64,000 bases of DNA from Branchiostoma floridae (Eukaryota; Chordata; Leptocardii; Amphioxiformes; Branchiostomatidae), in assembly GCF_000003815.2 (NCBI RefSeq), contig NC_049997.1, positions 15,929,503 to 15,993,502 on the forward strand, in the 5' to 3' direction. Both the position numbers and the translations under genes were made by a program. The notes below the pieces were generated by a model that was given only the letters and a program-made list of their open reading frames with translations, was not told the DNA's origin and did no database searches. Of this stretch, positions 106 to 25,228 are shown piece after piece. The first letter of the stretch is position 1, and every line of letters begins with the position of its first letter.

Positions 106-3100
106 ATGGGCCAGAAACCTGAAGTCAAAGTAAGTAATGTACTTTATTTTTTGATAGAGTCACGTGTAACAGTTAACCTTCGTCCTCACAATGGTGGTGT
201 ATAATCATAGCCTGATAGTACCATCGTATTCGGTTTACTACGGACCCATACCTACTATAGTGGCGTAAGCCCTGGTAAAATGAATAGGATGGCAACAGAG
301 ACAGCAGAATCACGGTGAAGACACCCTCCCACACAGGGTTGACTATCGCTATCACCCCTGACAATTTAGTCACAGAAAACGGGTATTAGGGGCGTGGCTT
401 CTAACCAACTGTCAGCCCATCGGAGACATGGCTTTTTGTTGTCCAAAGGCGCCATATAAGGCAATATATTCAAGAGCAAGATGACAATACCGGCATAACG
501 TTTCACAGTTCTTTCAGCGTCAGACGTCTTTATCAGGTACTAAATTTAAGATTTGTCTGTTCTGTGGGTATAGGGTAACCACGGGATACGAAATAAACAT
601 TATCATCACGCAAAAAATAAACAGATCTTTGTGCACGCCGGGTCGTACGCTGTTTGTTCGAAACTTGCAATCCGGCCGCTGATTGGCCTGCGACAAATCA
701 GATAAGCTCATTAATATTCATAAGTAAGGAATTGTCAGGGCATTGCCGCGATAGTCAACCCTGAGTGGGAGGGTGGTCGAAGATTACACATTCTTTATCT
801 AGCAATCTAGTCCTACCAAATGTAGAGTGGGAAGGTATTCTAAAAGATCATAAAGCCACGAGGTATTCATTACCACCAACGTAAGGTTAAAAGTTGAAAA
901 GTTGACATACTCATACATATATACATCTATGCAGAAAAGAAACCTCATTATAACAACTTAATATTGTATACATTGTCATAGTAATGTATATACTAGAAGA
1001 TAAGATCATCGCTGTGTCTCCTCTCAATCATGTTGTTTATATATTCAAATGGAGCCTGAATGTAGTATGTATAAGATTTATGTTATTAGCAAGTAGTCTG
1101 TAGCAACATTCTAGATTTGTTTCACATTGTACACTGTGTTTGTTCGAATAGTGCATATCCATCATCTACTGTTGCTAGCTTAATTCTGCCACTAGTATAT
1201 TGCTAGTGTTATTGCAATATAATGTATCATAAGTTTGCTTTACATTGTACCCGTTCTACAAATGTTGTGCAATAAACTTTGACTTGACTATATGCATGTC
1301 ATTTTGTCAAATTATGTCTTTCTTTATAAATTATACGGTAGATAAGATTATCGGAATGACTATGCGCTGACTGTAATCTAAATCTAAGTTTAAAAGACTC
1401 TTAGGACTCGATTTTACAAATTCAAATTATTGTAGCGTTTTTCTTCAATGTTATGTCTGTGAAGTTTGTCTGATTGCAATTTACCCCAGACCTTGAAAGA
1501 AGTAAAAAAAAAGTAGTTTGACCTGAAGCATACAATATACAGAGCTAGTATTTGAGAATAAACTCTTTCCTCTGTGACTAAGATAGACAAAAGAGCCCGG
1601 TTTACAGACATTAATGACTGCCATTGTTACACTGCCGTCGACAGATAGACCCTGAGGACAACAAAACCGGAAAGACACGGTTCCAGCCTCGTTTCAGGAT
1701 CGCGCTGGGATTGGCTGTGGCATTGCTGCTTGTGACATGCGCAGTGGCTGCAGCTGGGCTGATGACGTACTTCCGGGGAAAATGCGGAAACAACCGGGTG
1801 TGGCTTTTTGTTTCTTTTGGGGGGGGATGGAGTGGGGAGGGCGGTGTGTGTGCGAAGGGGGGGGGTGCTCACTGCCAAAACAGCAACAGATAACAATTAG
1901 CTTTCAAGTATGTCTCTGTTAAGATGCACTCTCACTGCACTTGTGTCAAGCTTGTGTCACTGTTTTGTTATTTTCTCCAATTTGGTATAATTTGATATTG
2001 TGTTATACGTAAAAGTATGTCACAGAGGACGACAAAATACACCAAAAGGAAGAAAATCCGTTCTTTATCTCCGAAATCCGTTAAGTGTCTTTCGAACCCC
2101 GCAGTGACGCAAGCTTGACACAAGTGCAGTGAGATTACACCTATAGGTGTCCGGACGGTAAAAGTCCACATTTGTTGATCCAGTTTGCTTCTTTGTTGTT
2201 GTTGTTGTTGTTGTTACACAGTTCACCATTAAGGCCTGCGTGAATGGTCAGACGTTCACAGAGGAGGTAGAAGTGGACCGGGAGAACGGCATGGTGGTGT
2301 ACCGTGATGACGTCAGCAATGAACACGGGGAGATCGTGCAAACCAAAGAGGTAGGGCGAAAAAGGACTCAAGTTGAATTAATTAATTTTCTTTCTGTGGT
2401 AAACGCCTGGTTAGTGCAAAAATTTTTACCGATCAAATTTATAACTGTTTTTGGAAAGTTTGAAATAGCTACTGACTGCTTGTTTTAAAACACACGACGA
2501 TTTTTTAGCAATGCAATACCAGTATGCCATGATTTTTAATATGGATATTCTAATCTGACTCTTGTTTCTTTGTAAAAATCCATTCTTTACAGGGACTGAC
2601 TGTGCTTTACTACGGAGGTAACTGTTACGTTTTGGAGGACGAAAGTAACAATCAGACAGATGGCTTTGACTTTGATGCGGTGGAAGCTTCGATGGAGTTC
2701 TTGGCTGTAAGTCCACTGAATATTAAACTATTTACCTTTATATGAATAAATCAGTAAAGTGATAAAGCCTTTATTTTACATTTTGCACACGTGCAAATTA
2801 CAACTAAGACAAGTTTTACAAACATACACATGTTGAACTAGAGTTCCACGACCCCATAACTTCCCCAAATAATCCTAACCTTTACAACTGCTCTATAATT
2901 TTGTGTCATTAATTATGCAAATATGTTGTCATTTGCGTAATTATATTACTTGATCATCTTCACCAACAAACAACAAACGTACACAATCTATGTTATGAAA
3001 AAGGCTTTTATCTCATTTTCTAATAATTTATGCAAATCAGGACCTCATTTGCATAATCATTCAACCCCTACCTGAGTTATTTCCTTACAAAGTCTGACAC

Positions 3101-5469
3101 TAAACCTGCCCTGCAGTTCCAAAACAAGCAGCTATGTGGCCAAAACCAACATCTCTTACTCTCGGCATTCAGAGCTGTCTACCAATCAAAAATCATATAG
3201 CCGCAGCATGTTCAGAACTCGAGATATCAAACCAGGAAGNNNNNNNNNNNNNNNNNNNNNNNNNNNNNNNNNNNNNNNNNNNNNNNNNNNNNNNNNNNNN
3301 NNNNNNNNNNNNNNNNNNNNNNNNNNNNNNNNNNNNNNNNNNNNNNNNNNNNNNNNNNNNNNNNNNNNNNNNNNNNNNNNNNNNNNNNNNNNNNNNNNNN
3401 NNNNNNNNNNNNNNNNNNNNNNNNNNNNNNNNNNNNNNNNNNNNNNNNNNNNNNNNNNNNNNNNNNNNNNNNNNNNNNNNNNNNNNNNNNNNNNNNNNNN
3501 NNNNNNNNNNNNNNNNNNNNNNNNNNNTATGGATGTTTAAAGTTTACTGGTACCCTATTGTCGCTTTATCAAAACGCCTGAAGGATTACTAATTTCTAAT
3601 ACTAGTTAGATATCTCAACTGGCGAAACTCACGTTCTAAAAACTATAAAGTATATTCATATAATTAGCATTAATGCATAGTCTACTACATTTCTGGTACA
3701 TATTTGACAAACTGTTTGCTCTTAGGTTAGAAATTACGGTTGTGCCTTTCTGGTTCAATTTGCAATTGGTAACAGGTTCTTTGTATACAATGTTATGGTT
3801 GATAATTGGCGTTCTTAATCTTTGTTTGCTTGTTTACTTGCTATCTAGAATATTACTTACGGCCGTTGAAAACTCTAATGTGGTATTTTTTTACGACAGT
3901 ATAGCAGTGAGGTGCCACGTTTTGACGTTGACCAAGTCGTGTTCCTGAACCGGTCAGTTCCGGTAAGCCCTGAAGATGACGTCATCCTACGATCACAGCT
4001 GCCACCTGTGTGTCATGACGTCACTTTGTACCGGGTCCAAAAGGGGAAAGCTCGAGGTAAAACTGTTACACCAATCACATCTTGTCTATTATGCACCAAA
4101 TGGATCCCATGAGTCATTTGCTTTGTAGTGTCATAGCAAAATCAGTTAATTTTGCGACAATGGGATTGGCTGACGGATAAAAAGTTTAAGCTGGCTAGTG
4201 CCCTGTCCATGACATTTGTACCAGACAACCCCCTCGAAATAAAAGAAATAAAAAATATAACGTTATTATGGATGCCAGGAGACACATTTCCGGTCGCACG
4301 ACATTGACGTACGTCAAAGTCGTCCGTCTCCGACATACGTTTTTTGTGCTTTGTGTGAACAGAACTCGCGCCGTCGGCGACAGGTATTTTATGGCCCGGT
4401 CGTACGTAGTACGTTAACCTCATAGTGGACGTACGACTGCCCTCGACCGCCCGACGGTAGGTCTGCGACGCTATTTTCCTTGTGTGAAAAGAACCGAGTC
4501 GCAGGTCGCTTCTCGGCACCGGTTTGTCGGCTGCAGGAGGTGATGGGAAATTCGCAAAGCAATAACTCAGTTTAGGATCAGTAGCCATAAATTGAATATT
4601 GANNNNNNNNNNNNNNNNNNNNNNNNNNNNNNNNNNNNNNNNNNNNNNNNNNNNNNNNNNNNNNNNNNNNNNNNNNNNNNNNNNNNNNNNNNNNNNNNNN
4701 NNNNNNNNNNNNNNNNNNNNNNNNNNNNNNNNNNNNNNNNNNNNNNNNNNNNNNNNNNNNNNNNNNNNNNNNNNNNNNNNNNNNNNNNNNNNNNNNNNNN
4801 NNNNNNNNNNNNNNNNNNNNNNNNNNNNNNNNNNNNNNNNNNNNNNNNNNNNNNNNNNNNNNNNNNNNNNNNNNNNNNNNNNNNNNNNNNNNNNNNNNNN
4901 NNNNNNNNNNNNNNNNNNNNNNNNNNNNNNNNNNNNNNNNNNNNNNNNNNNNNNNNNNNNNNNNNNNNNNNNNNNNNNNNNNNNNNNNNNNNNNNNNNNN
5001 NNNNNNNNNNNNNNNNNNNNNNNNNNNNNNNNNNNNNNNNNNNNNNNNNNNNNNNNNNNNNNNNNNNNNNNNNNNNNNNNNNNNNNNNNNNNNNNNNNNN
5101 NNNGCTACCTCTGCCAAACTGGTTTGTCTTCCCAGTATTTGTTTGTTCTGTTTGCTTTTATCTTTTGGTTCTTCTTACTTTTTTTAGGTTGGTAAAACGT
5201 AAAGAACGTGCAATAACTGCAACTCATTCGGAATTTCAGACCAGGGTTTGGACACCGAGCAGACGGAAGAGCGATCTCACCATCGCGCCAGGCGGGGCGA
5301 TCAGGATAATCCATACTACGACCCATATATGTTTCCCGACCACAACCTAATCGGTAGAGTTGATATGGTTCTTTATAGCGGACCATGTGAAGACCAGTAC
5401 CAATGCTTTAGTGTCTGGGGGTTCTATCAATCATCGCCCGAAGGGATGAAAAAGTATGGGTACCATTGA
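106..5469 (+). CDS. BRICHOS-domain type II membrane precursor, copy 1
   Basis: Six coding exons: 106-129, 1645-1797, 2222-2350, 2593-2706, 3900-4056 and 5240-5469, all with GT/AG borders, giving 268 residues. Residues 1-26 are a basic cytoplasmic stub and 27-51 a membrane segment with no cleavable signal. Residues 60-192 form the BRICHOS domain, with its family cysteine pair at about C113 (GNCY) and C178 (LPPVC) and an N-glycosylation site NRS. A RARR site ends at residue 211 and leaves a 57-residue C-terminal peptide that is acidic and tyrosine-rich with only two cysteines. BRICHOS domains act in the secretory pathway as chaperones for a hydrophobic C-terminal segment. Unlike its sisters this copy has an extra cysteine early in the domain (IKACV). 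Introns 4 and 5 contain assembly gaps, so a hidden exon cannot be excluded, although phases join cleanly. The BRICHOS call is firm; the role of the released peptide is unknown. Confidence 0.85.
310..785. repeat. Foldback element with ~50 bp inverted arms in intron 1
   Basis: The arm at about 312-366 is the imperfect reverse complement of the arm at about 730-785; both hold GCGATAGTCAACCCTG and GTGGGAGGGTG. The spacing and palindromic ends suggest a non-autonomous DNA transposon or a solo foldback. No target-site duplication was identified. Confidence 0.5.
880..1300. repeat. AT-rich possible retroelement tail
   Basis: The stretch ends in TGCAATAAACTTTGACTTGAC, which resembles a common 3' terminus of dispersed retroelements in amphioxus and fish. 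No open frame is present. The assignment rests on pattern memory only. Confidence 0.3.
1923..2141. mobile_element. MITE, TCTCACTGCACTTG family, copy A
   Basis: Terminal inverted repeats of about 30 bp: the left end reads TCTCACTGCACTTGTGTCAA from 1930, and the right end reads its reverse complement to about 2134. The interior is AT-rich and non-coding. A related copy with the same ends is at 26919-27165. It lies in intron 2 of BRICHOS copy 1 and is absent from the matching introns of copies 2 and 3, so it inserted after duplication. Confidence 0.7.
2820..3239. repeat. Dispersed repeat fragment before assembly gap
   Basis: The segment around 3205-3235 (TTCAGAACTCGAGATATCAAA) recurs at about 52300-52325 and, weaker, near 12165 and 36010. 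It appears to be a dispersed repeat, possibly the untranslated tail of a non-LTR retrotransposon. No coding potential is seen. Confidence 0.4.
3240..3527. other. Assembly gap (N)
   Basis: Run of 288 N within intron 4 of BRICHOS copy 1. Confidence 1.
4603..5103. other. Assembly gap (N)
   Basis: Run of 501 N within intron 5 of BRICHOS copy 1, about 135 bp upstream of the exon that carries the variable C-terminal peptide. Confidence 1.
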
Positions 5470-5872
5470 AGTACGCTACGTACAAACCAAACCCCCAAAA
5501 AGAAGAGGTTATAAAATCTATTAAACTACTACTAACGTTCACATTATTGCACACAACTTCTGCTTCACTGTAAAACCATTAAAAGGTATACAATAGTTAG
5601 CTGCACAGCATCACCGCAAACAACAAAAACCTAGCTGCCGTCCCCCAATCAAACGTTTTCATGCATCAAGTAAAACTACACGTGCACGAACAGTACCGGT
5701 CGTCTGATGCTCATAGAGTATTTGTTCTATTATGAACGGCATAACGTCGCTATTGCAGCTACTGTGAACCGGACGCTGAAGTGTACTGCAATTTCGGATC
5801 GGTAGGCGGAGCTTTTTTAAAAATGTAATAGAGCACGTTAAAAAAATTATTAGGCTTCATAACACACAAGAC

Positions 5873-6492
5873 ACCGGGCTGAAGTTAGCAGCCCTTTTAG
5901 CAGCCGATTTTAGCAGCCGATTTTAGCAGCCGATTTTGACCTAGAGGAAAGGTAGCATCCGATTCGACTACAAGTATTTTTATTTTTTTTTTACGATTTA
6001 GCCCAATTGAACACATTTTTCAACGTTAGCGTTGACAAAAGTTATAAAATAGTATTTTTCCAACAATTAGAGTTTGTTATCGTTAAGTTGCAATTCTTAG
6101 TTTAGCAAATAACAGCAAAATTAAAAAAAACTCCAGCAGCGACACCTACCGGAGTGAGTGTACTTACGTAAAATCGGCTGCTATACGGCTAGTAGACCGA
6201 TATGCTACTTATCTAAACGTGGCCCGTGAACTTGTGAGGCCAATTTAGATAAATTATACCCTAACGTATTCAATACAAGTATCAAATCTTACGGGCCGGG
6301 TTTAATTAATGAACTAGAGTGGAACTATTGTCAACTTTAACGTTGAAAAATGTGTTCAATTGGGCTAAATCGCAAAAAAAAATAAAAATATATGTAGTCG
6401 AATCGGATGCTACCTTTCCTCTAAGTCAAAATCGGCTGCTAAAATCGGCTGCTAAAATCGGCTGCTAAATGGGCTGCTAACTTCAGCCCGGT
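5873..6492. mobile_element. 620-bp palindromic MITE with 8-bp target duplication
   Basis: Both ends read ACCGGGCTGAAGTTAGCAG inward as inverted repeats, and the long arms continue for about 150 bp, including three tandem TTTTAGCAGCCGA units in each arm and a shared GCCCAATTGAACACATTTTTCAACG block. CACAAGAC flanks the element on both sides (5865-5872 and 6493-6500), an 8-bp target-site duplication as for hAT or P-type transposases. No open frame, so non-autonomous. It lies about 400 bp downstream of BRICHOS copy 1. Confidence 0.85.
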
Positions 6493-7035
6493 CACAAGAC
6501 GATATCGCATTGTAAGAACTGGCAGTGCCCCTTGGGCAGTCCATTCTTTCCGGGGGGGGGGGGGGTGACTTTTTCAAATCCATTTTTGAACCGGTCAATT
6601 ATCACTGTCAACAGGCAAACACTTACTACATTCGTGCAGCTTTTTGACGTTGAAAACAAACGCAATGTGCTATATCTATATCTGGACTTTCGTATCTTTG
6701 TTTACTTTTACGGGAATCATTATACTATTTACAGTTTTATTCACCTTTTTTTCTTTACATGGCCTTTCTGGGGAACATATAGTTAATTACCGTGGAATAA
6801 AGTTATAAAACAAAAGTATTGATGACTGTTTTCTCATAAATCACTGCTGTAAACATCAAAATAAAAAGCAGTTACTCAAGCACTTGGTTCAGACGTTTCA
6901 TGTAGTATCCACTAGTTTTAGTCAGTTACACCGAGGAAACCGAGTGTCACTCACTTAAGAGGTAAATGCAAGAGGGCACCGTATATTCATTGAAAACAAC
7001 AACGACTGCCAGACAAAGCAATTGTGTAGGTTTCA

Positions 7036-7258
7036 TACACACACACGAAAACACAAGTACACACATACAAGCACACGCAAACACATACACACACACATAA
7101 ACCCACACACACGCACAAACATACACAAGTACACACACACACACACACACATACACACAGAACACACACAATTTTTTTTAAACACACACACACATAAACA
7201 CACACAGACACACACACACACACATAAACACACAGACACACACACACATAAACACACA

Positions 7259-7295
<37 letters not shown>

Positions 7296-7312
7296 AAACA
7301 TCCACACACACA
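7036..7312. repeat. (CA)n microsatellite with ACAC/TAAA interruptions
   Basis: About 275 bp of near-continuous CA dinucleotides with periodic ATAAACACAGACAC variants. Long frames across it on both strands are artefacts of the repeat. Confidence 0.95.
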
Positions 7313-7399
7313 CAACTTTGATTTCACGTGGAAATTCTTAAAAACTTTCGCTATATACCCTTCGAGTACGTTTACACTTCGTTGGGTTATTAGCTTCGC

Positions 7400-8110
7400 C
7401 AAGAAGATTATGTTTTTGCCTGACTTGGGTCTGTATGTAGGTCAACAGGATATAACTCGAGAAATTGTGGATGGAACTTTTTTATTTTTTGCAGGTGTGT
7501 AGCGGTTGTTGAAAGGCATGCCTAGTTCGAAAATGGGTTACCTGGCGTTTTCCTATGGTACATTAGCGAGCTTGGTATTTTTTTGGTGTTTTTTCGGGAA
7601 GCATAAGTCAAAATTTAGCTGGGCGATTTCCACGATATTTGGCAGGTGTGTAGCGGTTGTGGAAATGATTGTCATGTGCAAGAATGGTTTAGCTACCTTT
7701 TACCTATGGTGCTGTAGCTGGCTTTGTATGTAAGTGCGTTTGTCTGTATGCAAGATAACTCGAGATGTTCTTGATGGATGCTAATGATATTTGGTTGATA
7801 GGTAGGGGACACAGAAAGGAAGGTCAAGTTCGATAATGGGCCTCCTGGCGACTTGTGTTGGTACTGCAAGTGAGCATCAAAGTTTGCGCCTAAATTTTCC
7901 AGAAGTGCCAGGTTCATGATTTTTTAATGGTGGATAGATGTTGGTACTAGGAGTCAATGGTCTAATTTTGGGCCCCCTAGCAGCTTGTTTGGAACTGCAG
8001 TGGGTCTTATAGTTTGTAGCTTTTAAGAAGGATAACTGCAGAGGAGATTGATGGATATTTTTTTTGTTTTTGGTAGCTAGGTACTTTGGTTGATTATCAA
8101 CATCTATTTG
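7400..8110. repeat. Dispersed repeat with recurring AACTCGAGA and GGCAGGTGTGTAG blocks
   Basis: Several imperfect internal repeats (ATAACTCGAGA; GCAGGTGTGTAGCGGTTGT at about 7492 and 7643; TTTACCTATGGT-like blocks) resemble the tail of a retroelement. No gene is seen. The following stretch to about 8640 shows nothing recognisable. Confidence 0.45.
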
Positions 8111-8639
8111 ATATAATTACTTAGGGAAAGTTATGCAATTAACAGAAATAAACAGTGTTTTCTATATACAGATGCATCTCATTTTGACCTATATTTAAGG
8201 ACACACGTACAGCTGTTTGCCAGATGTTTTGCCTGAGAAGCCTTGTGACCTGGACGCCCTACCACTGTGAAAATCCTCTTGACAAGCATGAAATTCTGAT
8301 TGACCGGGGATGCTACCACTGAGGTCATCTTTGGTCACAGTCCAATGCCCCCTATCATCAATGCTATTCGGCCAGGCTGGAGTCTGGTAGAGACTACATG
8401 ATTTTAATAAAGCACTATGATTATGAAAGTTGCGCTAGAAAGTATCACAACAGTGTACATAATTCCATTGTCACCAGTTGGCCAAGAAAGTTATCTTTGG
8501 TAGCATTTGTGGGTATGTAAGGAACACAAGTTCATGCAGTCATTTGCTATTGGGGTAGGTACTATTTAGTAATACATGAAAAAGACCTTAAAGTATTAAT
8601 AAAGGCATGATTATTTGGCGAAGGGATGTGTTCGATGAA

Positions 8640-9327: not shown

Positions 9328-10575
9328 ATGGACCAGAAACCTGAAGTCAAAGTAAGTAAATAATTTACGTTTAGGTCAGGGTTTGAAGATAGTTTGTCTC
9401 AAAGCCTTTTAAAGACAGTTAAGGGGCAGTGGGTTGTTTTCCACTGTGCCTAGGGCATGGTATTGGGAGACGAAGCCGTTCTACCGCCTTTTACCTCTCC
9501 AACCGAAGTCAGGTGCCCATTTTTACACCTGGGCGGTGTAAGGAAAGTCGTATTACATGCAACTGCTTTTCTAGAGGACAAAAATTCGGTAGCATAACGG
9601 GATTCGAACCAAGGACCTGTGGAATCTGTACCATACATTTTGCAGTTACCCAAAACGACCCCGGTGAGAGGGTACTACGTCACAATCTGGCGCTCAGTAT
9701 ACACGTTCGCCTTTTACGTCCGTGGTGCAATCTTAGCCTGATATACACTCTGTAAAATTTATCGTGGCCCCTATTACTGCACACCTAGTATAAGGACCCT
9801 GGTAAGCTAGAAAGGATGGCACCCAAGACAGCAGACGACTACACAATGTCTGCCTAGCAGGCTAGTGACATATTTGCTCGACACAACGAAGACAGGGGAG
9901 TTAACGTTAGTTATAGAAAAAGTTCAAGCAACTACCTTACACCGTCAACGTAGCACTAGAAGTTTAAAAGATGGCACACTCTTCCACAATGTGCATACGG
10001 GTAGCATTGTTTATGTTATTATGTAGACTCATTTCTTTATAATATTCTGTCTAAGTCTTTAGTACTTGTTTTCCTCAACAATAATAAAAAGGGGCGTGTA
10101 CAGCTATTCACGGGGCCTTTTGTTACACTGCCGTTTTGACAGATAGAACCCGAGGACAAGAAAACCGGAAAGACCAGGTCCCAGCCTCGTTTCAAGATCG
10201 CGTTGGGATTGGCTGTAGGCTTGCTGTTTGTGACTTGCGCAGTGGCGGCTGGTGGGCTGATGACGTATTTCCGGGGAAAATGCCAACATAAGAAGGTGTG
10301 ACTGTTTATTTGTTTTTCTCAGAGGTTTTGTCCAAACAGGAACAGCTAATCATTGGCATACTTGAATTCTGAGTCATGTTTATGAGTAAATATTTGATGC
10401 TAATCTCAATACATTTAAATTTGAAAATTAAATTATGAAAGTGTTTTCCATTACAACCGCGAAAAATGGTATTGCTAGTGTGTTTGTGCGTCTTTGTGTG
10501 TCTTTGTGCGTGTGTGTTTGTGTGTTTTCCGTGTGTTTTTAGTGTGTACATGTGGTTTTGATGTGTGTTTGTGTT

Positions 10576-10622
<47 letters not shown>

Positions 10623-13600
10623 GTGTGCGGGCGGCCGTGTGTGCGTGTATATCCTTGTTTCTGAATATTTGAAGTCACCATAACTTACCATCCTTTGCAT
10701 CCATCAAATTATTACTTGTTGTGTGGGTAGGCAATAAAAAAACGAAGTTCAAGATTGATATTTGCCCCCAGGTCCATAGTTTGTGGCCTTATTTCATTGC
10801 TTGTGTTGTTTCTGTACACACAGTTCACCATCAAGGCCTCCGTAGGCGGTCAGACGTTCACAGAGGAGGTAGAAGTGGACCGTGAAAACGGCATGGTGGT
10901 GTACCGTGATGACAGCAACACTGAAGATGGAGAGATCATCCAAACCAAAGATGTAAAATCTCTTAATTTCGTGTGGACTTAATTAAGCTGTAAAAATGGG
11001 ACTAAGGTTTTAGCTTTTTTTACGTGGATTACAAAATCCTGAAGCAAAAACACACAAACGTGGTTTGATGATTAGTGATTTATCGATAACAGGGGAAATA
11101 TTATAAAAACCACCAATTCTGCATGATATACAGTTGGAAATAAACATAACGTTATCTTAGTAGTTAAACCAGTGACACTAGCCTTTTACACGTTGAATCC
11201 TTTAGCATGCAAGCGAAATGATTGAGCCAGCGGTCACTACAGAGTGGTACTCGTGCTATGGAAACAGCCTATGGACAAAATTTTGTAGAACCAGGCAATT
11301 GTATCAACACAATAGCAATGATGTTTTGACCAGGTTGGTTTTGTTCCACAGGGTTTGTCAGTGCTCTACCAGAGAGGCAACTGTTACCTGTTGGAGGACA
11401 GAAACAACGACCAGACGAGCGACTTTGACATTGATGAGGTGGAAGCTGCAATGGAATCTTTAACTGTAAGTATTATGATAGAAATTCTTTGTGTTCATTG
11501 ATTTATGATCTACATATCAAATAATTTTGAGCAAAGAGAGATGCTGCTTTATTGATATTCATAGTATCATAAGATTCTTTCTCTTTGGACTGTTTTGACA
11601 AAAATGTCCCTGCTTTTTGAAAAGTAAATGCTGGGGGGGGGGGGAGGGGCGATCTTGTCCTGAGCAAAAGCTATCTGCTTCTATTATCCTATATTGTTTA
11701 ATTAGTAAAAAAAAAGATCCTATATTGTTTACTTAGTAGAATTTTAAGATCTATTCTGCATTCCTTCTTTTTTTGTAGTTTATAGTTGACCATACAAAAG
11801 TTACTGTACTATTTTTGTCGTGTCAATGAAGCTTCAATATCAATATCATATCGTAGATCTATGAGGTACAAGAGATATGTTGAAAAACTGCTATGATAAA
11901 ACATTCTCAATAATGATGCAACTTTCCTCATATTTTGTATGATTTGTATTCTATTTCGACATCTTTGTCTAAGCAACCTACATACCAATAATCATGAAAA
12001 TCCGTTATTCCTTTTTTGATTATATAATTATTCTGTTCGGAAATTTTTGAAATTAATTCTCCAGCAACTCTAAAGCTAGCGGCTAGGGGACTTCAAGTTA
12101 TGTCATTTTTTGCTGAAAACGAGCAATCAAATAGCCAAAAAAAATCGTGACCATAGCTTGTCCAGAACGCAAGATTTCAAACAAGTTCCGCTGCAGTACC
12201 ATGTAAAGCCCCTAGGGATGCCATAATCTAATCATTTCCAAATTTCATTGCAAACCACTAACACACCACATGAAGTTGACTCATATAGCCCTTTGTTACC
12301 ACCAAGACAGACAGCAGACACACAAACGCTAGTGAAAATACGAAGTGATAAGTTTCTTGCTATGGGTTTTCATTGTCGTAATCACTGGCAACGTAATATG
12401 CCCAAAGCAGTTTAGAAAAATCAAATATTGCTTGAGTTACGGTTTTACAAAGTCCCAAAAGCGAAGAGTCAATGAGTAGGGATAATAGCATCTATTTAAT
12501 ATTAACATTCTTTACGACAGGATGCCAGTGACGGACCGAGCTTTGACGTTGACCAAGTCATATTTCTGAACCGGTCAGTTCCGGTTAGCTCTGAAGATGA
12601 CATCATCTTGCGATCACAGCTGCCACCTGTGTGTCGTGACGTCACGTTGTACCGGGTCCAAGAGGAGAACGCTCGAGGTAAGTCTATAAACTGACCCTGT
12701 TCTAGTCTCAATAGCTGTTCTAAAGTATAGTGTAAGCTCTTTCGCAGATTTTACTACGCATGTGCAGGTGCCAGAAATCCTGGGTAATACCTACAAGGTG
12801 AAGGCCGGTCAAACGAAACAGTCTCGTCTTGACCATTGTTTTGATCTGCGTGATCTGAAATGAATGTCTGGAACGTAATTGCGCTTGCAAAATGGTGAAA
12901 TGTTTACGTTCACGGGGCCTTTACCCTTGACTTTTTTACCCAGGACTCTTGACGGCAGCATATGCGTAGTGAACTCAAATTGTAATATAAAAAGAGATTA
13001 AGTTAAATTCCGAATGCTGTCTTATGGGGCTAAAGACCAGCAGTTTCCGTTTCCTTTTTAACCACGTGCACGATTTGTCTTGAATGTACCCAGAAGTTGA
13101 AGTTAAACTATAAAGGGATTGGCAGATCGCCATGATCATATAAGCGATATTTAATACACATAGATGTGAAATATGTAAATTGACATTTAATTTGCATAGC
13201 TAATGACGAAAGTTTATAAACCCACTTCATTATAGGACTATTCCAACATGTGACGTTTTGTAACCGAGAAATAGAATAATATGGATATCATGCAAAAGAA
13301 AATCCAAGTTGCATAACTAGCGAGGAAATTCTATAACTCCATTGTAAAATGAATAACGGGAATGTCATCCTTCCATGAGGAACTCATTTGCATAAATTAT
13401 CAGAAAATACAAATAGCCGTCTTTCTTAGATAGATTGTGTACGTCTGTTGTTTTGGTGGAGGTGATGATCAACTGATAAAATCTATGCAAATTTATCTTA
13501 TTTACATCATACGAGATGATAAAAACACATAACAAATGAGTTGAAATCATTTGAGGAAGGTATTGGCTTATGGCAACTTAATATGGAACTTGTTGGAAAA

Positions 13601-13986
13601 TGTTTTGTAGGAACATAAAATAACTCTGTCAATCGTACGGAATTTCAGATTATTTGGAACAGGACATCAGCGATGGAGTGGAGACGGACACGTTCTACAA
13701 TCGTGTCAGGCGGTCTGTTGGAGATAGGTCCGGTTTTAGAGGAATAACAATTATTATTCTGTATGTGGGGCGTTGTTCTAGGTCCTGGGGGTGGCCCCGA
13801 TGTACATGTAGATTTATGTGTTGGCGCTGCAATTGCTATAAAGTAGTGATTTATTGGGGGCGGCCTTCGGTGGTGCCCCCGGAGGGAGATATCTGCTGTA
13901 ATGGTGAATTGCAGGCCATTCGTGAGCATGTTTTGGACAATGTAGGAGCATTTCAGAACCAACAAGAAATCTTACCAGAACAATAA
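9328..13986 (+). CDS. BRICHOS-domain type II membrane precursor, copy 2
   Basis: Exons 9328-9351, 10143-10295, 10824-10952, 11352-11465, 12521-12677 and 13649-13986 (24, 153, 129, 114, 157, 338 nt) encode 304 residues. Order: short basic N terminus, membrane segment about residues 27-51, BRICHOS domain 60-192 with cysteines about 113 and 178, then an RVRR furin-like site ending at residue 214. The released 90-residue peptide starts with a hydrophobic strand (ITIIILYVGRC), goes on with a cysteine-dense core of pattern C-x8-C-x-C-x3-C-x2-C-x-C, a second strand (YKVVIYW), a CC pair and a glutamine-rich tail; eight cysteines in all. Exon sizes and phases equal those of copies 1 and 3, apart from the last exon. 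A conserved 3' UTR with AATAAA follows. Chaperoned release of a disulfide-rich secreted peptide is inferred from the family layout; antimicrobial or growth-regulatory activity is speculative. Confidence 0.9.
9430..9670 (-). mobile_element. tRNA-derived SINE in intron 1 of copy 2
   Basis: On the minus strand a tRNA-like head with a box B (GGTTCGAATCC) is followed by a body containing CACCCAGGTGTAAAAATGGG-like and CTTCGGTTGGAGAGGTAAAA-like blocks. The same insertion sits at the same place in copy 3 (16800-17060) and is missing from copy 1. Related body fragments are near 30650 and 33200. Confidence 0.65.
10480..10645. repeat. (GT)n microsatellite in intron 2 of copy 2
   Basis: GT-rich stretch with a pure (GT) core at about 10581-10627. 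Copy 3 has a related GT-rich tract at the same intron position (17900-18036), consistent with common descent. Confidence 0.9.
12040..12345. repeat. Dispersed repeat, shared with 52890-53180
   Basis: Blocks such as AACTCTAAAGCTAGCGGCTAG, CTGCAGTACC, ACTAACACACCA and a closing run of CAGACAGCAGACACACAAACG recur in the same order near 52900-53170. This suggests copies of one retroelement tail. It lies in intron 4 of BRICHOS copy 2. Confidence 0.5.
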
Positions 13987-14540
13987 GATATCGACTAAGA
14001 TAATTCACCGTGTTTTAAAACAGACCACCTACGCACAGTGGTATGACACTCCGCATCTTGAATACAAATATTTGTGAATTAGACTCAATCCCAAACGACC
14101 TGGTATGTTTGGAACCCAGATGCCACAAGAAAACTTAATACAACAGTCGTTCAGAACATGCCTTTGTTTGTCAGATGTTGAATCTTGCATTAACTTGTGC
14201 CGATGTGTTCTAAACATGCATGCCTTACTTGCAGAATAGATGATTTAGCATGTACACAAGCCGACTTCGTAACTAATAATCTTGGTTGGTAGAAGTTTCA
14301 ACAATTATCCAAAAGGCATGGTCGTTTAGTTACTCGTTGACTTCATGATTGAACCGGGCTTAAAATCGGGCCAAATTACAAAATGTATCTCTATTCTTTC
14401 CTTTGTTCGATTTATTCTGTTTAAAGTTGCTGCTTGTGTATTGTTTGTGTAATTTTCGTTCAAATTTAGTGAAAATACATTGGGTTGATATAATACTTTG
14501 TCGTAAAATAATTGAAATAAAGGTACAAACCCAAAGTCCA
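13987..14540 (+). other. 3' UTR of BRICHOS copy 2
   Basis: An AATAAA signal at 14516-14521 sits in a stretch (CTTTGTCGTA..AATTGAAATAAA) that matches the 3' end of copy 3 near 21160-21182. The mRNA end is therefore likely just past 14530. Confidence 0.6.
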
Positions 14541-14613
14541 GGAATTTTCTTATTCCTGGTATCATTCTACAATTAGGAAACAGGTGATAACAACAACACG
14601 AATGTGTGTTTAG

Positions 14614-14615
<2 letters not shown>

Positions 14616-14663
<48 letters not shown>

Positions 14664-15003
14664 ACACCAATATCTATATATACAACACCAATATCTATAT
14701 ACAACAACAATGTATATCTATATGTATGTATATATATATATCTATATATCTATATATCCATTTCTATATATCTATATATACGTATCTCTCTCTCTCTCTT
14801 AACATATATATATATATATATATTATATATTATATAAAATATATATATATATATATATATATATGGCGTGTGACGTGTGGCTGGATGGGTGATGTGTGTC
14901 GGTGTGTGCGTGTGTCTGTGCGTGCTGTGTGTGTCGGTGAGTGCGTGTACGTGTGTTTGGTGTTGCGTGTGCTGTGTATGTGTACGCGCGTGCGCGTGTG
15001 TGT
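14616..15003. repeat. (TA)n, TATC and (GT)n microsatellite cluster
   Basis: Pure TA runs at about 14616-14660 and 14804-14866, with CTATATAT and TCTC variants between them and a GT-rich stretch from 14870. No gene. Confidence 0.95.
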
Positions 15004-15429
15004 GTTGAAGACAGAGCATACTCCTTCTTAAACATAAAGTTATTGCTGATCTTAACTTGTTGTGTGTCGAGCACAATACCTCCGGAGGTAAATATATGGT
15101 ACTGTTGATGTCCAAAATGTATTTGTTCAGTCAAGCGCTAAAAGCATCGCGGGGGCCTTGTTACTGCAACTGTGTACAGGACGCCATGCACATGTGTAAC
15201 ACAGATTCAATTTTTAACGAATGTGCTTAACTCCTGTTTACAGTATCTTGATCAAAAGATTATATGTTATCTTTGAACTTAATTCTCCTCTCACGACAAA
15301 CAACGTCTTACGATATATCACAGGAATCTTACAATATATTATTCTACCTTATTGATACATTTTAAAATAATGGAATGTTACACATCTAGATTGCACTAGG
15401 AAAAGGACTGAGAGTGACATACCCTGCGT

Positions 15430-16030
15430 TGTAACTAAATATAATATACATTTAGAACACGTTAAGACTTCGATGGGTTTATAAACAAGCAATCTTGAGT
15501 TATAAGCTTCAGTGCATTCACGAGTTAACGTGTAATTCTTCTGACACCTGTACTGTATAAATATCTGATTTGTTCACATTAGTTTCTGACTCTTATCTAG
15601 GGGAGAGTTTTTTTTCATAATTAAGGAGATGAACAATTTGTCTATATTTTCATGTCTTGAACCATTTGAAAATACCTTGTTTCAATTAATGAGCTACCAT
15701 TAAAAGAAGACATTGTAGAGGTCAACATTGTTCTTAGTTTCCTCAGTTTCTTATCAATTATTATTCATCATTTGACAAATTTTATCAAAATTCGTTAAAA
15801 CTGGGTTTACAAACAGCCAATCTTGGATTAAAAGTTTGTTTACAATTTCTGCTTCAGTGCTTTAATAATCGAGTTAACATATAATGCTTACAACACCTGT
15901 GCTCTGTAAATGTCTGACTTTTTCACGTTAGTATCTGACTATCATCTTTGAGTGTTATCTTTTTCATAATCAAAGAGACGACCAATTTGACGATTTGTCT
16001 ATATTTTGATGTCTTGAACCAATTGAAAAT
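15430..16030. repeat. Two ~315-bp tandem upstream blocks before BRICHOS copy 3
   Basis: The blocks at about 15470-15740 and 15785-16030 share ordered motifs: aacaagcaatcttg/aaacagccaatcttgg, GAGTTAACGT or GAGTTAACAT, ACACCTGT, TTCACRTTAGT, TTTTTTCATAAT, TTTGTCTATATTTT and TGTCTTGAACCA. A single related block lies upstream of copy 2 (8690-8930). The duplication is specific to the copy 3 flank. Confidence 0.6.
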
Positions 16031-16236
16031 ACTGTAAATGCAAAAAAAAGTTCCCGGAGATTTAATTTCGCGGTAGCGGGAAAATGAACTTTTCGAGGTG
16101 GTTTAATTTCGCGGTAGCACCATGCACTGTCTTACTTTTATGAAAAATGTTCGCGGTGGTTTTAAATTCGCGGTAAAGCGGCCGACGCGAAAACCGCGAA
16201 CACTAAACCACTGCTAACGTTTCTGCATTTACAGTA
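16030..16236. mobile_element. MITE with TACTGTAAATGC termini, copy A
   Basis: Starts TACTGTAAATGC and ends GCATTTACAGTA, an inverted repeat, with an interior rich in TTCGCGG and CGCGGTAG motifs. A second copy lies at 58680-58891. The terminal TA could be a TA target duplication as for Tc1/mariner-type elements. It separates the duplicated upstream blocks from the copy 3 promoter. Confidence 0.75.
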
Positions 16237-16454
16237 CCTTGTTTCACATATAATGAGCTACTATCAAAAGAAGATCTTTCTAGAGGTCAAAATTGGAATC
16301 TTTAGGTCATGGCGTTTTAGCAACAAGTTCTGGTACATTGACGTTTCTAACCAAGAAGACAGAGTGACTTCCTTGTTGTCATGTTATGTAATGCTATGTC
16401 CTAATATCACGTATTGTTCTCGTCTAGTTATCAAATTTAATCTTATCAACCTCA

Positions 16455-16711
16455 CATAATCATGACGTCAACGTAGGTCAAGAGTAAAATTAGAAGGTCA
16501 CGGTATCCTAGCAACAAGCTCGGGGCTATCGAAGTCTTTGGTACACAAAACAAAGAGGATGTCACTTTTTCAATCAAGTGGAATAATTATTCAAATCTAA
16601 AGGTGTAGTTGTTGTTCCCAACTGCGCATACCCCAGCTATAGCCCGTGACGACGGTCGGTACTTGAAGTTTGTCGCTGTTAGAGTCGGGCACAGAAGATC
16701 TGAAAGAAGCA
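16455..16711 (+). promoter_or_regulatory. Promoter/5' UTR of BRICHOS copy 3
   Basis: Colinear with 9075-9327 of copy 2. It contains the same TGACGTCAACG site, TAGGTCAAGAG, TATCCTAGCAAC and GTTAGAGTCGGG blocks up to the start codon. No TATA box is seen. Confidence 0.55.
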
Positions 16712-19700
16712 ATGGACAAGAAACCTGAAGTCAAAGTAAGTAAATAATTTACGTGTAGGTCAGGGTGTGAATTTAATTAGTCTCAAAGCCTTTTAGAGAC
16801 AGTAAAGGGACAGTGGGTTGTTTTCCACTGTGTCAAGGGCACGGCATTGGGAGGCAGAGACCATTTCTGTTCTTCCACCGCCTTTTACCTCTCCAACCGA
16901 AGTCTGGTACCCATTTTTTACACCTGGGTGGTGTAAGGAAAGTCGTATTACATGTAATTGCTTTTCTAGAGGACAAAAATTCGGTAGCATAACATGATTC
17001 AAACCAAGGACCTGTGGAATCTGTACCATATACTTTGCAGTTACCCAAAACGACCCCGGTGAGAGGGTACTACGTCACAATCTTACGCTCAGTATACACG
17101 TTCGCCTTTTACGTCCGTGGTGCAATCTTTGCCTGATATACACTCTGTAAAATTTATCATGGCCCCTATTACTGCACACCTAGTATAAGGACCCTGGTAA
17201 GCTAGAAAGGATGGCACCCAAGACAGCAGACGACTACACAATGTCTGCCTAGCAGGCTAGCGACATATTTGCTCGACACAACGAAGACAGGGGAGTTAAC
17301 GTTAGTTATAGAAAAAGTTCAAGCAACTACCTTACACCGTCAACGTAGCACGGGAAGTTTAAAGGATGACACACTCTTCCACAATGTGCATACGGGTAGC
17401 ATTGTTTATGTTATTATGTAGACTCATGTCTTTATAATATTCTGTCTAAGTCTTTAGTACTTGTTTTCCTCAACAATACTAAAAAGGGGCGTGTACAGCT
17501 ATTCACAGGGCCATTTGTTCCACTGTCGTTGACAGATAGAACCCGAGGACAAGAAAACCGGAAAGACCAGGTCCCAGCCTCGTTTCAAGATCGCGCTGGG
17601 ATTGGCTGTAGCCTTGCTGCTTGTGACTTGCGCAGTGGCGGCTGGTGGGCTGATGACGTATTATCGGGGGAAATGCCAACATAAAAGGGTGTGACTGTCT
17701 GTGTGTTTGTTTTTCTTAGAGACACTGTCAAACCAGAACAAATAATAATTAGCTGACTTGAAATGTGAGTGGCGCTTAGGGGTAAATACTTGATTTTTCG
17801 ATATGCTGTTTAGAAATAGAATTGAATACGAAAAAGTTATTAGATAATAATGAAGTTGTTTTTCATCACCTCCATGAACAATGATTTAATTGTTAACTGT
17901 GTTTTTGTGTGTGCGTGTGTGTTTGTGCGTGTTTTTTGTGTTTTGGGACGTGTTTGTGTGTACGGGCATGTGTGTTTGTGTGTGTGCGTTTGTGTCTGTC
18001 TGTCTGTATGTGTGTGCCTGTCTATCTATCTGTGTTTCCGAATACTTGGAGTCACCTTAACTCTGCATTGATTAAACTGTTACTTGTCTTGTAGGGAGGC
18101 GATGGGAAGACGAAGGCCAATGCAATTTCGATATTTACCCCTCCCCCCGTACAAAGTGTGAAGCCTTGTTTCATTACTTTTTTTTCTGTACATACAGTTC
18201 ACCATTAAGGCCTCCGTAGGCGGTCAAACATTCACAGAGGAGGTAGAAGTGGACCGTGAAAACGGCATGGTGGTGTACCGTGATGACGTTAGCACTGAAG
18301 AGGGAGAGATCATACAAACTAAAGAGGTAGAAACTGTTTTTTTTTCGTCTGGACTGGATAATGCGATAAAGATGAAAAAAAAACTTTCACCTTCGTGAAC
18401 AAAACAATACTTTATGGCGGTTGCATGATTTCGCGATTGAGAAGTATCGCGAAAACTGGGAAAATGAAACCGCCAGTATTTCATGATTTCAGTACTGCAT
18501 ATTCACTAGTCAAATCCCATTAAAGACACTAATCTTTACAAACTATGTCCCTAAACTTCAATTTTTCACCGCTTATAAAAGCCCATAACAAACAAGATGA
18601 TATGTGATTTGAAAAGTCCTGTGGACAAACTTGTGTAGAACCAGGTTATTGTGTCAACACAATAGGAATGCTGTTCTCACCAGGTGGTTTTGTTCCACAG
18701 GGTTTGTCAGTGCTGTACCAGAGAGGCAACTGTTACCTGTTGGAGGACAAAAATAACGACCAGACGAGCGACTTTAACATCGATGAGGTGGAAGCTGCAA
18801 TGGAATCTTTAACTGTAGGTATTATGATATAAATGATTTGTGTCTATTGATCCACATACGTTTAAGCAAAGAAAGATACTACTCCATTGATAGTAATAAT
18901 ATTATTTTGAATGATAACGTTTTAAAAAAATCTTCTGCATTTCCAAAATTAAATTGGAACGGGCCTACCTTACCTTGTACTAACCAAAGGCCATTATCTG
19001 CAGATCACATATCAATACCATATCGTATCAGCTATATACGTTGCAAAGCTGCTATGATAGAATAGCCTCACTCATTATGCAGATTTCCTCATATTTTGCA
19101 TGATTTGTATCTAATGTCGATATACCTGGTCCAATAATCATGATAATCATGAAGTCTCTTCGGAAATATTTCAAATTAATTATCCAGCAATCCCAAAACT
19201 AACCGCTAGGAGACCCAAAGTTGTGTCAATTCTTTCCGAGAACAAAAGCTAACTAGAAAGGCAACATTTTCACGTAAATGCAGAAGTCTTCCCCGTGGTC
19301 TTTTTTTAAGCTAGTCACATACTATAGTGTACCAATATTAACTAGAAAAGCCACATTTTCTAAGACAATGCAGGATGTTTCCGAACAAAAAAGAAAAAAA
19401 GCGCAAAAAAGAAACAAACAAAAAAAATGTGAGGGGAGCAAGCCGGAAAAAAAGTCCCGACCACTACTATATCTCCGCGACCCAACCTCTGCTTGGAGAA
19501 GCGCTAAGTATAATCATATCCCTGTATTTTGCAACAGAACCGATATACGTTTACGACATATTTGTCAATTTGCGGCATGAACACCCCCCTCCCCACATGG
19601 ACCGCCCCGCTTTTCGAAAGTTCTAAGAGTAAGAGCCAGAGTCAACGAGTAAGAATGATATCATCTACTTATTAATGACATTCTTTACGACAGGATACTA

Positions 19701-20662
19701 ATGACATACCGAGCTTTGACGTTGACCGAGTGATCTTCCTGAACCGGTCAGTTCCGGTTAGCCCTGAAGATGACGTCATCCTACGATCGCAACTGCCACC
19801 TTTGTGTCGTGACGTCACACTGTACCGTGTCCAAGAGGAAAACGCTCGAGGTAAATCTATCACACTAAAACGATGAGGAAAAACTATGCGGTAAGACTAC
19901 TACACTATTACAGTTAAACTTGCTCTAGACTCCAAGCAAATCTTGGATATAGTATTGGTTTCAATACAATTCAAACTATGAATTCAGAAATGGGATGATT
20001 TTGAGACAATAATACCCACTCCCCAAACAGAGGTTAGGCTCCGGCTGTTTTTCGACGTTTTTAGGTGTTTTTATCGGGCTTTCTATTTTGTACCGTGTTG
20101 TTGATGTCATGCCTAACCTCTGCTTGGAGAGCACTGACTACCATGCTCTTGTGCTGAGACCCTGCGTATTTTTCACTTCCTCTTTAACCACGTTTTATCC
20201 TAACTCCAATTAGATGTAGGAAAGGAAAATTACCGTAACTTAGTCCCTGGTCGGCAGACTATTGGGTCTTTTCGCTGCCAAATCTGGAGTTGAAGAAAAG
20301 TAACAATTCTAATGTTATCAATTTCTGCTTGGAGAGTTGTTTTTTAAATATTTTTTCCTGCGTCATTTTGTTGTACCGTTAGAAATTGGAAAATGTTGTG
20401 TAAGCACATACAATGACTTCGTAAATTGTTCGGATTTGCAGATTATTTGCAACAGAAAAACGACGATGGAATAGGGACGGAAATGTCCCACAATCGTGTC
20501 AGGCGGTCTGAAGGATGGTGCCGAGGAGGGATGAAAATCAGGCTTTTGTACGCGGGACAATGTTTGTGGCACCCCCCGTGTAGATGTGAATATCAGTGCA
20601 GGCGGGGATGCCATTGTATTAAGATGGAGTTTTCGTGTGGTGGGGGTGAATATAGTGGGTAG
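16712..20662 (+). CDS. BRICHOS-domain type II membrane precursor, copy 3
   Basis: Exons 16712-16735, 17536-17688, 18198-18326, 18701-18814, 19694-19850 and 20442-20662 encode 265 residues. The N terminus, membrane segment (about 27-51) and BRICHOS domain (60-192, cysteines about 113 and 178) differ from copy 2 at few positions. An RVRR site ends at residue 214 and leaves a 51-residue peptide with eight cysteines and a net basic core: a strand MKIRLLYAGQC, then C-x5-C-x-C-x3-C-x3-C-x-C, then a strand IKMEFSC and a glycine-rich end. The framework matches the copy 2 peptide (hydrophobic strand, LY-x-G-x-C, C-x-C-x3-C, C-x-C) while most other residues differ. The last exon is 117 nt shorter than in copy 2. 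A CRE-type promoter and AATAAA-containing 3' UTR are conserved with copy 2. Its precursor role is inferred from the family; the biological target is unknown. Confidence 0.9.
16800..17060 (-). mobile_element. tRNA-derived SINE in intron 1 of copy 3
   Basis: Same SINE at the same site as 9430-9670 in copy 2, with colinear flanks on both sides for several hundred bases. It predates the copy 2/copy 3 duplication. The box B has decayed (GGTTTGAATC on the minus strand). Confidence 0.65.
17900..18036. repeat. (GT)n-rich tract
   Basis: Degenerate GTGTGTTT and GTCTGTCT runs in intron 2 of BRICHOS copy 3, matching the tract in copy 2. Confidence 0.85.
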
Positions 20663-25100: not shown

Positions 25101-25228
25101 ACCGTTCGATGCCCGATTTAGTCATAATGTGGAAGGAACTGGAAACAAAAAGCGGGGTTCCGAAACCTTTTCCAACCATAGCATTTGTGCCTCCGGAATG
25201 GAAAGCGCGAAAGGATCTCGATACGTAA
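22192..25228 (+). CDS. Single-pass membrane protein with long acidic tail, family unknown
   Basis: Two exons: 22192-22332 (47 codons, phase 0, GTAAGT donor) and 23117-25228 (TTTTTTTCATAG acceptor), giving 750 residues. The start has a good context (AAGATGG). Residues about 8-35 are a strongly hydrophobic membrane segment, followed by a basic WPGRKEK stop-transfer stretch, so the long remainder is probably cytosolic. The tail is acidic and low-complexity. It has Glu/Asp clusters, a conserved-looking patch RYQYLFRRGDFDSSDEDRGY near residue 205, a second acidic patch ESSDEDEDDDF, and Ser/Pro-rich segments (SPSPRPDF, SRPPSPRTKP) that look like phosphorylation sites. The C-terminal part holds SMPDLVIMWKELE, a possible short helix. 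No enzymatic or known adhesion domain is visible. The very long uninterrupted 3' coding exon is unusual for this window. The coding call is firm; function is unknown. Confidence 0.85.

What the first reader, a model, noticed from the sequence alone, without database searches (positions are those of the whole stretch)
106..20662. Three tandem BRICHOS precursors with conserved chaperone half and swapped C-terminal peptides
Seen: residues 1-192 (membrane anchor plus BRICHOS) are almost the same in the three genes, with equal exon sizes and phases. The last exon keeps only a dibasic cleavage site and then encodes 57, 90 or 51 very different residues. Known: BRICHOS precursors of this layout release a C-terminal peptide, such as chondromodulin in vertebrates or arenicin-type antimicrobial peptides in annelids. 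Inference: a small chordate family in which the peptide evolves quickly under a constant chaperone, as expected for host defence or signalling peptides.
Basis: partly seen in the sequence, partly recalled or inferred. Interest (0 to 1): 0.88.

Follow-up and report, generated by a model that had tools for sequence, protein, structure and literature searches.

The report
Furin-cut peptide precursors in amphioxus
Three neighbouring genes in what looks like an amphioxus genome encode membrane-anchored precursors whose folding-helper half stays much the same while the small peptide cut from the end changes fast, an arrangement known from worm antimicrobial peptides; what these peptides do is untested.

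Summary
The three genes are real: six exons each, the first five of equal size and phase, 268/304/265 aa, at the stated coordinates. They belong to a wider family: a gapped copy upstream, six-exon copies on two other contigs, a pseudogene and fragments. All six last exons found carry R-x-K/R-R. The domain is not found by Pfam BRICHOS, although five recalled human BRICHOS segments are. Profile comparison supports remote BRICHOS homology (E 1.7e-4; 0 of 200 column shuffles; both cysteines aligned), leaning on chondromodulin. The near-universal BRICHOS Asp is absent in this alignment.

The last exons do not look swapped. Genes 2 and 3, the upstream copy and the C9 copy share a C-x-C-x3-C-x(2-3)-C-x-C core; gene 1 shares the exon start up to the cleavage site but hardly the peptide. 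Positive selection is not shown, and high identity at the 5' ends of genes 2 and 3 looks like recent homogenisation. Best reading: remote BRICHOS-type precursors releasing fast-diverging cysteine-rich peptides; host defence is possible, weak for the acidic gene 1 peptide. Known kind (annelids), new variant.

The parts
106..129 (+). gene 1 exon 1 (start codon, 8 aa, presumed cytosolic)
   Evidence: ATG then GT donor; near-identical in genes 2/3
1645..1797 (+). gene 1 exon 2; likely transmembrane anchor about 1699-1770 (by eye)
   Evidence: hydrophobic run ALGLAVALLLVTCAVAAAGLMTY flanked by R/K read from the sequence
2222..2350 (+). gene 1 exon 3, BRICHOS-like domain part 1
   Evidence: profile match
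2593..2706 (+). gene 1 exon 4, BRICHOS-like domain part 2 (first conserved Cys)
3900..4056 (+). gene 1 exon 5, BRICHOS-like domain part 3 (second conserved Cys)
5240..5469 (+). gene 1 exon 6: acidic linker, RARR site 5284-5295, peptide 5296-5466 (57 aa, net charge -5, 2 Cys), stop
   Evidence: single match in the assembly
9328..9351 (+). gene 2 exon 1
10143..10295 (+). gene 2 exon 2; likely transmembrane anchor about 10197-10268 (by eye)
10824..10952 (+). gene 2 exon 3, BRICHOS-like part 1
11352..11465 (+). gene 2 exon 4, BRICHOS-like part 2
12521..12677 (+). gene 2 exon 5, BRICHOS-like part 3
13649..13986 (+). gene 2 exon 6: acidic linker, RVRR site 13702-13713, peptide 13714-13983 (90 aa, 8 Cys, core CTCRFMCWRCNC), stop
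16712..16735 (+). gene 3 exon 1
17536..17688 (+). gene 3 exon 2; likely transmembrane anchor about 17590-17661 (by eye)
18198..18326 (+). gene 3 exon 3, BRICHOS-like part 1
18701..18814 (+). gene 3 exon 4, BRICHOS-like part 2
19694..19850 (+). gene 3 exon 5, BRICHOS-like part 3
20442..20662 (+). gene 3 exon 6: acidic linker, RVRR site 20495-20506, peptide 20507-20659 (51 aa, 8 Cys, core CRCEYQCRRGCHC), stop

Best explanation
This is a tandem part of a chordate precursor family of BRICHOS type. Each gene makes a membrane protein, probably type II. A divergent BRICHOS-like domain in the secretory pathway would shield a cysteine-rich C-terminal peptide until furin-like enzymes cut at R-x-K/R-R and the disulphide-bonded peptide is released. 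The anchor and domain are under purifying selection and, at the 5' end of genes 2/3, recently homogenised. The peptide keeps a cysteine scaffold (C-x-C-x3-C-x(2-3)-C-x-C, whose outer and inner Cys pairs could nest in a hairpin) and otherwise diverges; gene 1 has lost or replaced the scaffold. Shown here: gene structure, family, cleavage motif, the two-cysteine domain, the scaffold in four copies. Inferred: transcription, membrane topology, cleavage, disulphides, chaperone action. Guess: the released peptides act in defence at body surfaces (about 0.45) rather than as signals or matrix factors (about 0.35).
For: Gene models with conserved splice frame. Six last exons found in the assembly (3 in the window, 1 gapped copy upstream, C9, C13), and 6 of 6 carry R-x-K/R-R. 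Two cysteines and one N-glycosylation sequon (N-R/K-S) are conserved in 5 of 5 domains. hhalign of 5 amphioxus against 5 human BRICHOS domains (human letters recalled, each confirmed by PF04089): E 1.7e-4, score 30.1, 117 columns, both cysteines aligned; 0 of 200 column shuffles reach it (max 20.4), reversed profile 13.05; 68 decoy open frames (single sequences) reach at most 14.4, the 5 amphioxus domains taken singly 17.2-22.5. Peptides: the 6 pairs among genes 2, 3, upstream and C9 copies beat nearly all shuffles (0 of 2000 in five pairs, 4 of 2000 in one). The linkers before the basic site are acidic in 6 of 6. Annelid precedent: 13 BRICHOS precursors in one worm with peptides of 18-91 residues, five of them membrane-anchored, two peptides with 11 Cys and no pronounced positive charge (PMC10745061, section 2.1 read).
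Against: Pfam finds no BRICHOS. A profile search of the PDB does not bring up the ITM2B BRICHOS chain at E<=10, though that chain is held. hhalign probability is only 49, and drops to 2.3 (score 18.8 over 20 columns, below the best column shuffle of 20.4) when chondromodulin is left out. Of the five human domains scored against the other four, only ITM2B (28.0) is as low as the amphioxus family; the other four score 50-78. The conserved BRICHOS Asp falls at Thr/Ala or a gap. No structure could be predicted. Beta-strand clustering beyond composition is clear only in the gene 2 peptide (25 of 2000 shuffles) and borderline in C13 (92 of 2000); not in the other four. Gene 1 and C13 peptides do not resemble the rest, except for a weak gene 1-gene 3 match (15 of 2000). 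No expression data were available.
Confidence: 0.68

Rival explanations
1. Chondromodulin-like matrix or signalling factor: the released Cys-rich peptide acts on the animal's own cells or matrix, not on microbes.
For: Of five human BRICHOS domains, chondromodulin alone gives a full-length match to the amphioxus profile as a single sequence (score 22.5, 117 columns, 20% identity; the others 1-23 columns) and its removal weakens the match most. Two of six peptides are acidic (gene 1 -5, upstream copy -2). Anchor and furin-type site fit.
Against: The human chondromodulin BRICHOS segment finds nothing of this family in the assembly (one hit, E 3.0, on C11). The vertebrate C-terminal cysteine pattern, recalled and not tested, differs from C-x-C-x3-C-x(2-3)-C-x-C. 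PMC2751770 speaks of well conserved LECT1 and TNMD C-termini in its passages, though its table gives mean identities of 48% and 32%, so this point is soft.
Confidence: 0.3
2. Relaxed paralogues: after duplication the C-terminal peptide lost function in some copies and drifts; the domain is what matters.
For: No reliable dN/dS above 1 in the peptide. Gene 1 has only 2 Cys and net charge -5. A pseudogene and fragments show birth and death: the copy at C19:15844742-15846924 has an AT acceptor and a stop.
Against: The cysteine scaffold is kept in four copies on two contigs although genes 2/3 show no nucleotide similarity above shuffles there (706 of 2000; each is still similar to the upstream copy, 0 of 2000), and the cleavage site is kept in 6 of 6: both suggest selection on a released peptide.
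Confidence: 0.2
3. Not BRICHOS: an unrelated two-cysteine lumenal domain, lineage-specific, with the same precursor logic by convergence.
For: No Pfam BRICHOS hit, no PDB BRICHOS hit, Asp absent, hhalign support hangs on one human family, and four of five true members score far higher.
Against: Full-length co-linear profile match with both cysteines in register, above shuffles and decoys, plus matching order of anchor, domain, furin site and peptide.
Confidence: 0.2
4. Exon swapping: the last exons were exchanged between genes or captured from elsewhere.
For: The gene 1 and C13 peptides resemble none of the others except gene 1-gene 3 weakly (15 of 2000 shuffles); in gene 1 the similarity at nucleotide level stops about at the cleavage site.
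Against: Acceptor and linker of gene 1 are homologous to genes 2, 3 and the upstream copy (0, 6 and 8 of 2000 shuffles). Whole-genome searches with three of the last exons (C9, upstream copy, gene 1) find only family members; gene 1's finds only itself, so no donor is seen in this assembly.
Confidence: 0.07

Closest known systems
Annelid BRICHOS-related antimicrobial peptide precursors (arenicin, alvinellacin, capitellacin, nicomicin, HfBRI peptides)
   Same: Anchor or signal, BRICHOS-type domain, basic cleavage site, variable C-terminal peptide; several precursors in one animal with different peptides (PMC10745061 section 2.1)
   Different: Presumed chordate, domain beyond Pfam reach, peptides weakly cationic or acidic. 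In Alvinella the reverse pattern is reported: identical peptide, diversifying BRICHOS (PMC5431198, abstract and first part of the discussion)
Chondromodulin / tenomodulin (LECT1, TNMD)
   Same: Membrane-anchored precursor, best single profile match among five human BRICHOS, Cys-rich C-terminal part (recalled)
   Different: Different cysteine spacing (recalled); Asp present in human chondromodulin and not here. Tenomodulin itself was not compared
OAF
   Same: A BRICHOS member recognised by structure and profile methods, with a long Cys-stabilised mature part after a furin-type site (PMC9714404 passages)
   Different: OAF has a signal peptide, a sequence 48% identical between human and fly, and keeps the Asp
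Hedlund 2009 'divergent group' with echinoderm and amphioxus sequences
   Same: Amphioxus BRICHOS sequences had been seen before (PMC2751770, one sentence)

Membership tests
BRICHOS superfamily | match to Pfam PF04089 over its cut-off | tested here: not met
   0 BRICHOS hits in 3 whole proteins (E<=1) and 3 domain segments (E<=10; only noise families at E about 0.1); 5 of 5 human controls hit
BRICHOS superfamily | remote profile homology over the whole domain | tested here: met
   E 1.7e-4, probability 49, 0 of 200 column shuffles; weak without chondromodulin, and four of five true members score higher
BRICHOS superfamily | two conserved cysteines (helix 2 to strand 4 disulphide) | tested here: met
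   5 of 5 domains, in register with human in hhalign; the bond itself is untested
BRICHOS superfamily | conserved Asp at the end of strand 2 (97% of single BRICHOS, PMC9627735) | tested here: not met
   Alignment places Thr (Ala in C9) or a gap there; the alignment is uncertain at this spot
BRICHOS superfamily | N-terminal transmembrane anchor or signal | tested here: met
   Hydrophobic run of about 24 residues in 5 of 5 full-length proteins, read by eye; no topology program was run
BRICHOS superfamily | proprotein convertase site before the mature part | tested here: met
   R-x-K/R-R in 6 of 6 last exons; the motif only, not cleavage
BRICHOS superfamily | mature part of two antiparallel strands with nested cysteines | tested here: inconclusive
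   Near-symmetric Cys spacing in 4 of 6 peptides; no structure
BRICHOS superfamily | BRICHOS fold | not testable with these tools
BRICHOS-related antimicrobial peptides | cationic C-terminal peptide | tested here: inconclusive
   Net charge positive (+2 or +3) in 4 of 6, negative in 2 of 6
BRICHOS-related antimicrobial peptides | antimicrobial activity | not testable with these tools
   needs peptide and assay
Chondromodulin/tenomodulin | vertebrate-type C-terminal cysteine domain | not tested
   pattern recalled only

The most novel reading that the evidence does not exclude
A cephalochordate host-defence peptide system built on a BRICHOS chaperone that lacks the otherwise near-universal Asp: one scaffold and chaperone module reused to present fast-changing Cys-rich peptides, the opposite of the Alvinella pattern and a chordate counterpart of annelid BRICHOS antimicrobials.
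Probability: 0.3. Interest if true: 0.72.

Novelty: new variant of a known kind. Interest (0 to 1): 0.48.

Why it matters
If right, chaperone-guided peptide precursors like those of marine worms also diversified in a basal chordate. It would give a natural test of what the conserved BRICHOS Asp is for, and show that domain-model searches for BRICHOS peptides can miss whole families. A 2025 review states that a single antimicrobial peptide has been identified in amphioxus (PMC11767717 passages), so candidates are of use.

Tried and rejected
Rejected: swapped last exons (homologous acceptor and linker; no donor found). Rejected as unproven: positive selection on the peptide (the only finite ratios above 1 are 7.3 and 1.65, both in the linker of 22 codons, the first resting on 0.5 synonymous changes; several pairs have saturated dS and give no ratio). 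Rejected: that the high identity of genes 2/3 is due to selection alone (introns 1-5 are 94, 72, 60, 55 and 45% identical, shuffled control mean 44%, max 48%).

Led nowhere: PF04089 search of the assembly rang nowhere, controls included, so it says nothing. PDB profile search gave 9 chains, none a BRICHOS. The last exon of the pseudogene at C19:15844742-15846924 was not found by tblastn. Human chondromodulin against the assembly found no relative; the same for ITM2B did not complete. Paper searches: BRICHOS with amphioxus (5 papers), BRICHOS with Branchiostoma (5 papers), two of BRICHOS/lancelet/cephalochordate (347 papers, 10 listed, those 10 without BRICHOS, so papers with BRICHOS and one of the other words may be unseen), chondromodulin with amphioxus (3 papers). 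From listings and the passages read, none is about this family; only open-licence papers are in that library. Papers seen only as listings are not cited as read.

Analysis choices that could bias: pairwise codon alignments in the peptide are forced through low similarity, so its dS and dN are rough; the cleavage site was located by its own pattern; C13 exons 1-2 are assigned by eye; decoys are single sequences, the family is a profile; intron identities are from forced alignments.
Full report
What is there. The window holds three tandem genes on the + strand. A script built each as six exons; exons 1-5 are 24, 153, 129, 114 and 157 nt in all three, the introns are GT..AG, and the proteins have 268, 304 and 265 residues. 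Over exons 1-5, genes 2 and 3 agree at 174 of 192 residues; gene 1 agrees with them at 146 and 148. AATAAA signals lie within 1,600 bases downstream of all three, which is weak support.

The family. A protein search of the window's own assembly (513 Mb, 431 contigs) with gene 3 gave 31 exon-level matches at E<=10. Sorting them gives: the three window genes; an upstream copy on the same contig cut by an N stretch, with part of exon 5 and a full last exon (C19:15916301-15917697); a six-exon gene with open frame on C9 (3973991-3983626, 273 aa); a divergent six-exon gene with open frame on C13 (22222410-22225537, 259 aa); a pseudogene on C19 (15844742-15846924: AT instead of AG before exon 4, a stop in exon 5, no last exon found); and fragments (C9 exons 1-2 on the minus strand, part of exon 3 at C19:15879040 on the minus strand, isolated exon 1 copies at C19:15902423 and C19:4033597, with a piece like exon 3 at C19:4032733). 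Queries with the C13 protein and with the last exons of C9, the upstream copy and gene 1 found no further members. Counts are lower bounds: the tool says so, and an 11,390-base N stretch ends at the base before the window.

The cleavage site and the peptides. All six last exons carry a furin-type R-x-K/R-R (RARR, RVRR, RVRR, RVRR, RDRR, RNKR), preceded by an acidic linker (net -2 to -6). After it, the peptides of genes 2 and 3, the upstream copy and the C9 copy resemble each other beyond chance (0 of 2000 shuffles in five of six pairs, 4 of 2000 in the sixth). With cysteine matches scored zero, three of these pairs still stand out (0, 0 and 2 of 2000) and three are weaker (27, 94 and 159 of 2000). 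So much of the likeness is the cysteine scaffold: C-x-C-x3-C-x(2-3)-C-x-C with a further Cys 6-9 positions before it. The spacing is symmetric for the outer and inner pairs, which could nest as in a disulphide-laddered hairpin; this is inference. The gene 1 and C13 peptides do not join this group; gene 1 against gene 3 is weak (15 of 2000).

Not swapped. Forty bases before the last exon plus the linker of gene 1 match gene 2 (0 of 2000 shuffles), gene 3 (6) and the upstream copy (8); against C9 and C13 they do not (769 and 714). After the cleavage site gene 1 matches genes 2, 3 and the upstream copy not at all or weakly (1286, 30 and 981 of 2000). Gene 1's last exon has no second match in the assembly. 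The exon is the same exon; the peptide part diverged or was overwritten within it.

Rates. Genes 2 and 3 differ at 0.045 of non-synonymous and 0.193 of synonymous sites in exons 1-5, but at 0.388 and 0.576 in the peptide. The rise in both classes, with dN/dS 0.50 and dS about 1.1, shows fast divergence and no proven positive selection. Introns 1-5 of genes 2/3 are 94, 72, 60, 55 and 45% identical, against a mean of 44% (max 48%) for ten shuffles of intron 5. Synonymous differences in exons 1-5 are 0.00, 0.11, 0.22, 0.13 and 0.31, so the trend along the exons is uneven. I read this as recent homogenisation of the 5' ends, by gene conversion or partial duplication, in an older pair; part of the 'constant' half is due to that. 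The domain itself is still constrained: C9 and gene 3 agree at 91 of 133 residues, C13 and gene 3 at 71 of 129.

Is it BRICHOS? Pfam does not say so, while five recalled human BRICHOS segments all hit PF04089. A PDB profile search did not bring up the ITM2B BRICHOS chain. Profile against profile, the five amphioxus domains match the five human ones over 117 columns, E 1.7e-4, probability 49, both conserved cysteines in register. None of 200 column-shuffled profiles reached it (max 20.4 against 30.1), and 68 decoy open frames reached at most 14.4. Each human domain scored against the other four gives 28.0 (ITM2B) to 77.7; four of the five lie at 50 or above, well over the amphioxus family. Removing chondromodulin drops the match to 18.8 over 20 columns, so the link leans on that family. 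The Asp present in 97% of single BRICHOS domains (PMC9627735, passages) is Thr, Ala or a gap here. Of the five features used to admit OAF to the family (PMC9714404, passages), anchor, furin site and cysteine pair are met as sequence features, the nested-cysteine hairpin is plausible in four of six peptides, and the Asp is not met. I call it a remote BRICHOS-type domain, not a certified BRICHOS.

How it likely works. A membrane-anchored protein enters the secretory pathway; the lumenal domain holds the cysteine-rich tail until it folds; a furin-like protease cuts; a disulphide-bonded peptide leaves. Annelids offer the model: one worm has 13 such precursors with peptides of 18-91 residues, five of them membrane-anchored, and two peptides with 11 cysteines and no pronounced positive charge (PMC10745061 section 2.1). 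In Alvinella the selection runs the other way, with one fixed peptide and a diversifying BRICHOS (PMC5431198, abstract and first part of the discussion); [quoted passage not shown] Whether the amphioxus peptides kill microbes is open; the charge of gene 1 (-5) and of the upstream copy (-2) speaks against a uniform cationic antimicrobial role.

Novelty. The layout is a known kind. New here, as far as the searches reach, are the family in this presumed chordate, its distance from the Pfam model, the missing Asp, and the pattern of a kept cysteine scaffold with changing peptides. One earlier survey mentions amphioxus BRICHOS sequences in a divergent group (PMC2751770); these may or may not be the same genes.

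Noticed in passing
directly upstream of window base 1 (C19:15918113-15929502): An 11,390-base N stretch ends at the base before the window, between the gapped upstream copy and gene 1; more copies may be hidden there.
   Followed up: no
window 48148-50880, minus strand: Open frames matching FMN-dependent dehydrogenase (PF01070), with a stretch at 49385-49699 weakly like a reverse transcriptase zinc-binding part, below its cut-off, lying between them.
   Followed up: no
window 23117-25228, plus strand: A 703-residue open frame rich in acidic residues with no Pfam family at E<=0.001.
   Followed up: no
C19:15902423 and C19:4033597: Exon 1 of the family with its donor site, without mismatch over 30 bases, apparently stands alone in the fetched stretches; at C19:4032733 a piece like exon 3 lies nearby in the wrong order.
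   Followed up: partly
window 5873-6492: Two inverted arms of 119 nt, 97% complementary and 382 nt apart, about 400 bases 3' of gene 1's stop; looks like a small mobile element.
   Followed up: partly
C9:3775328-3776132, minus strand: Exons 1 and 2 of a further copy, with GTG in place of the start codon and no later exons found by tblastn in the fetched 40 kb.
   Followed up: partly
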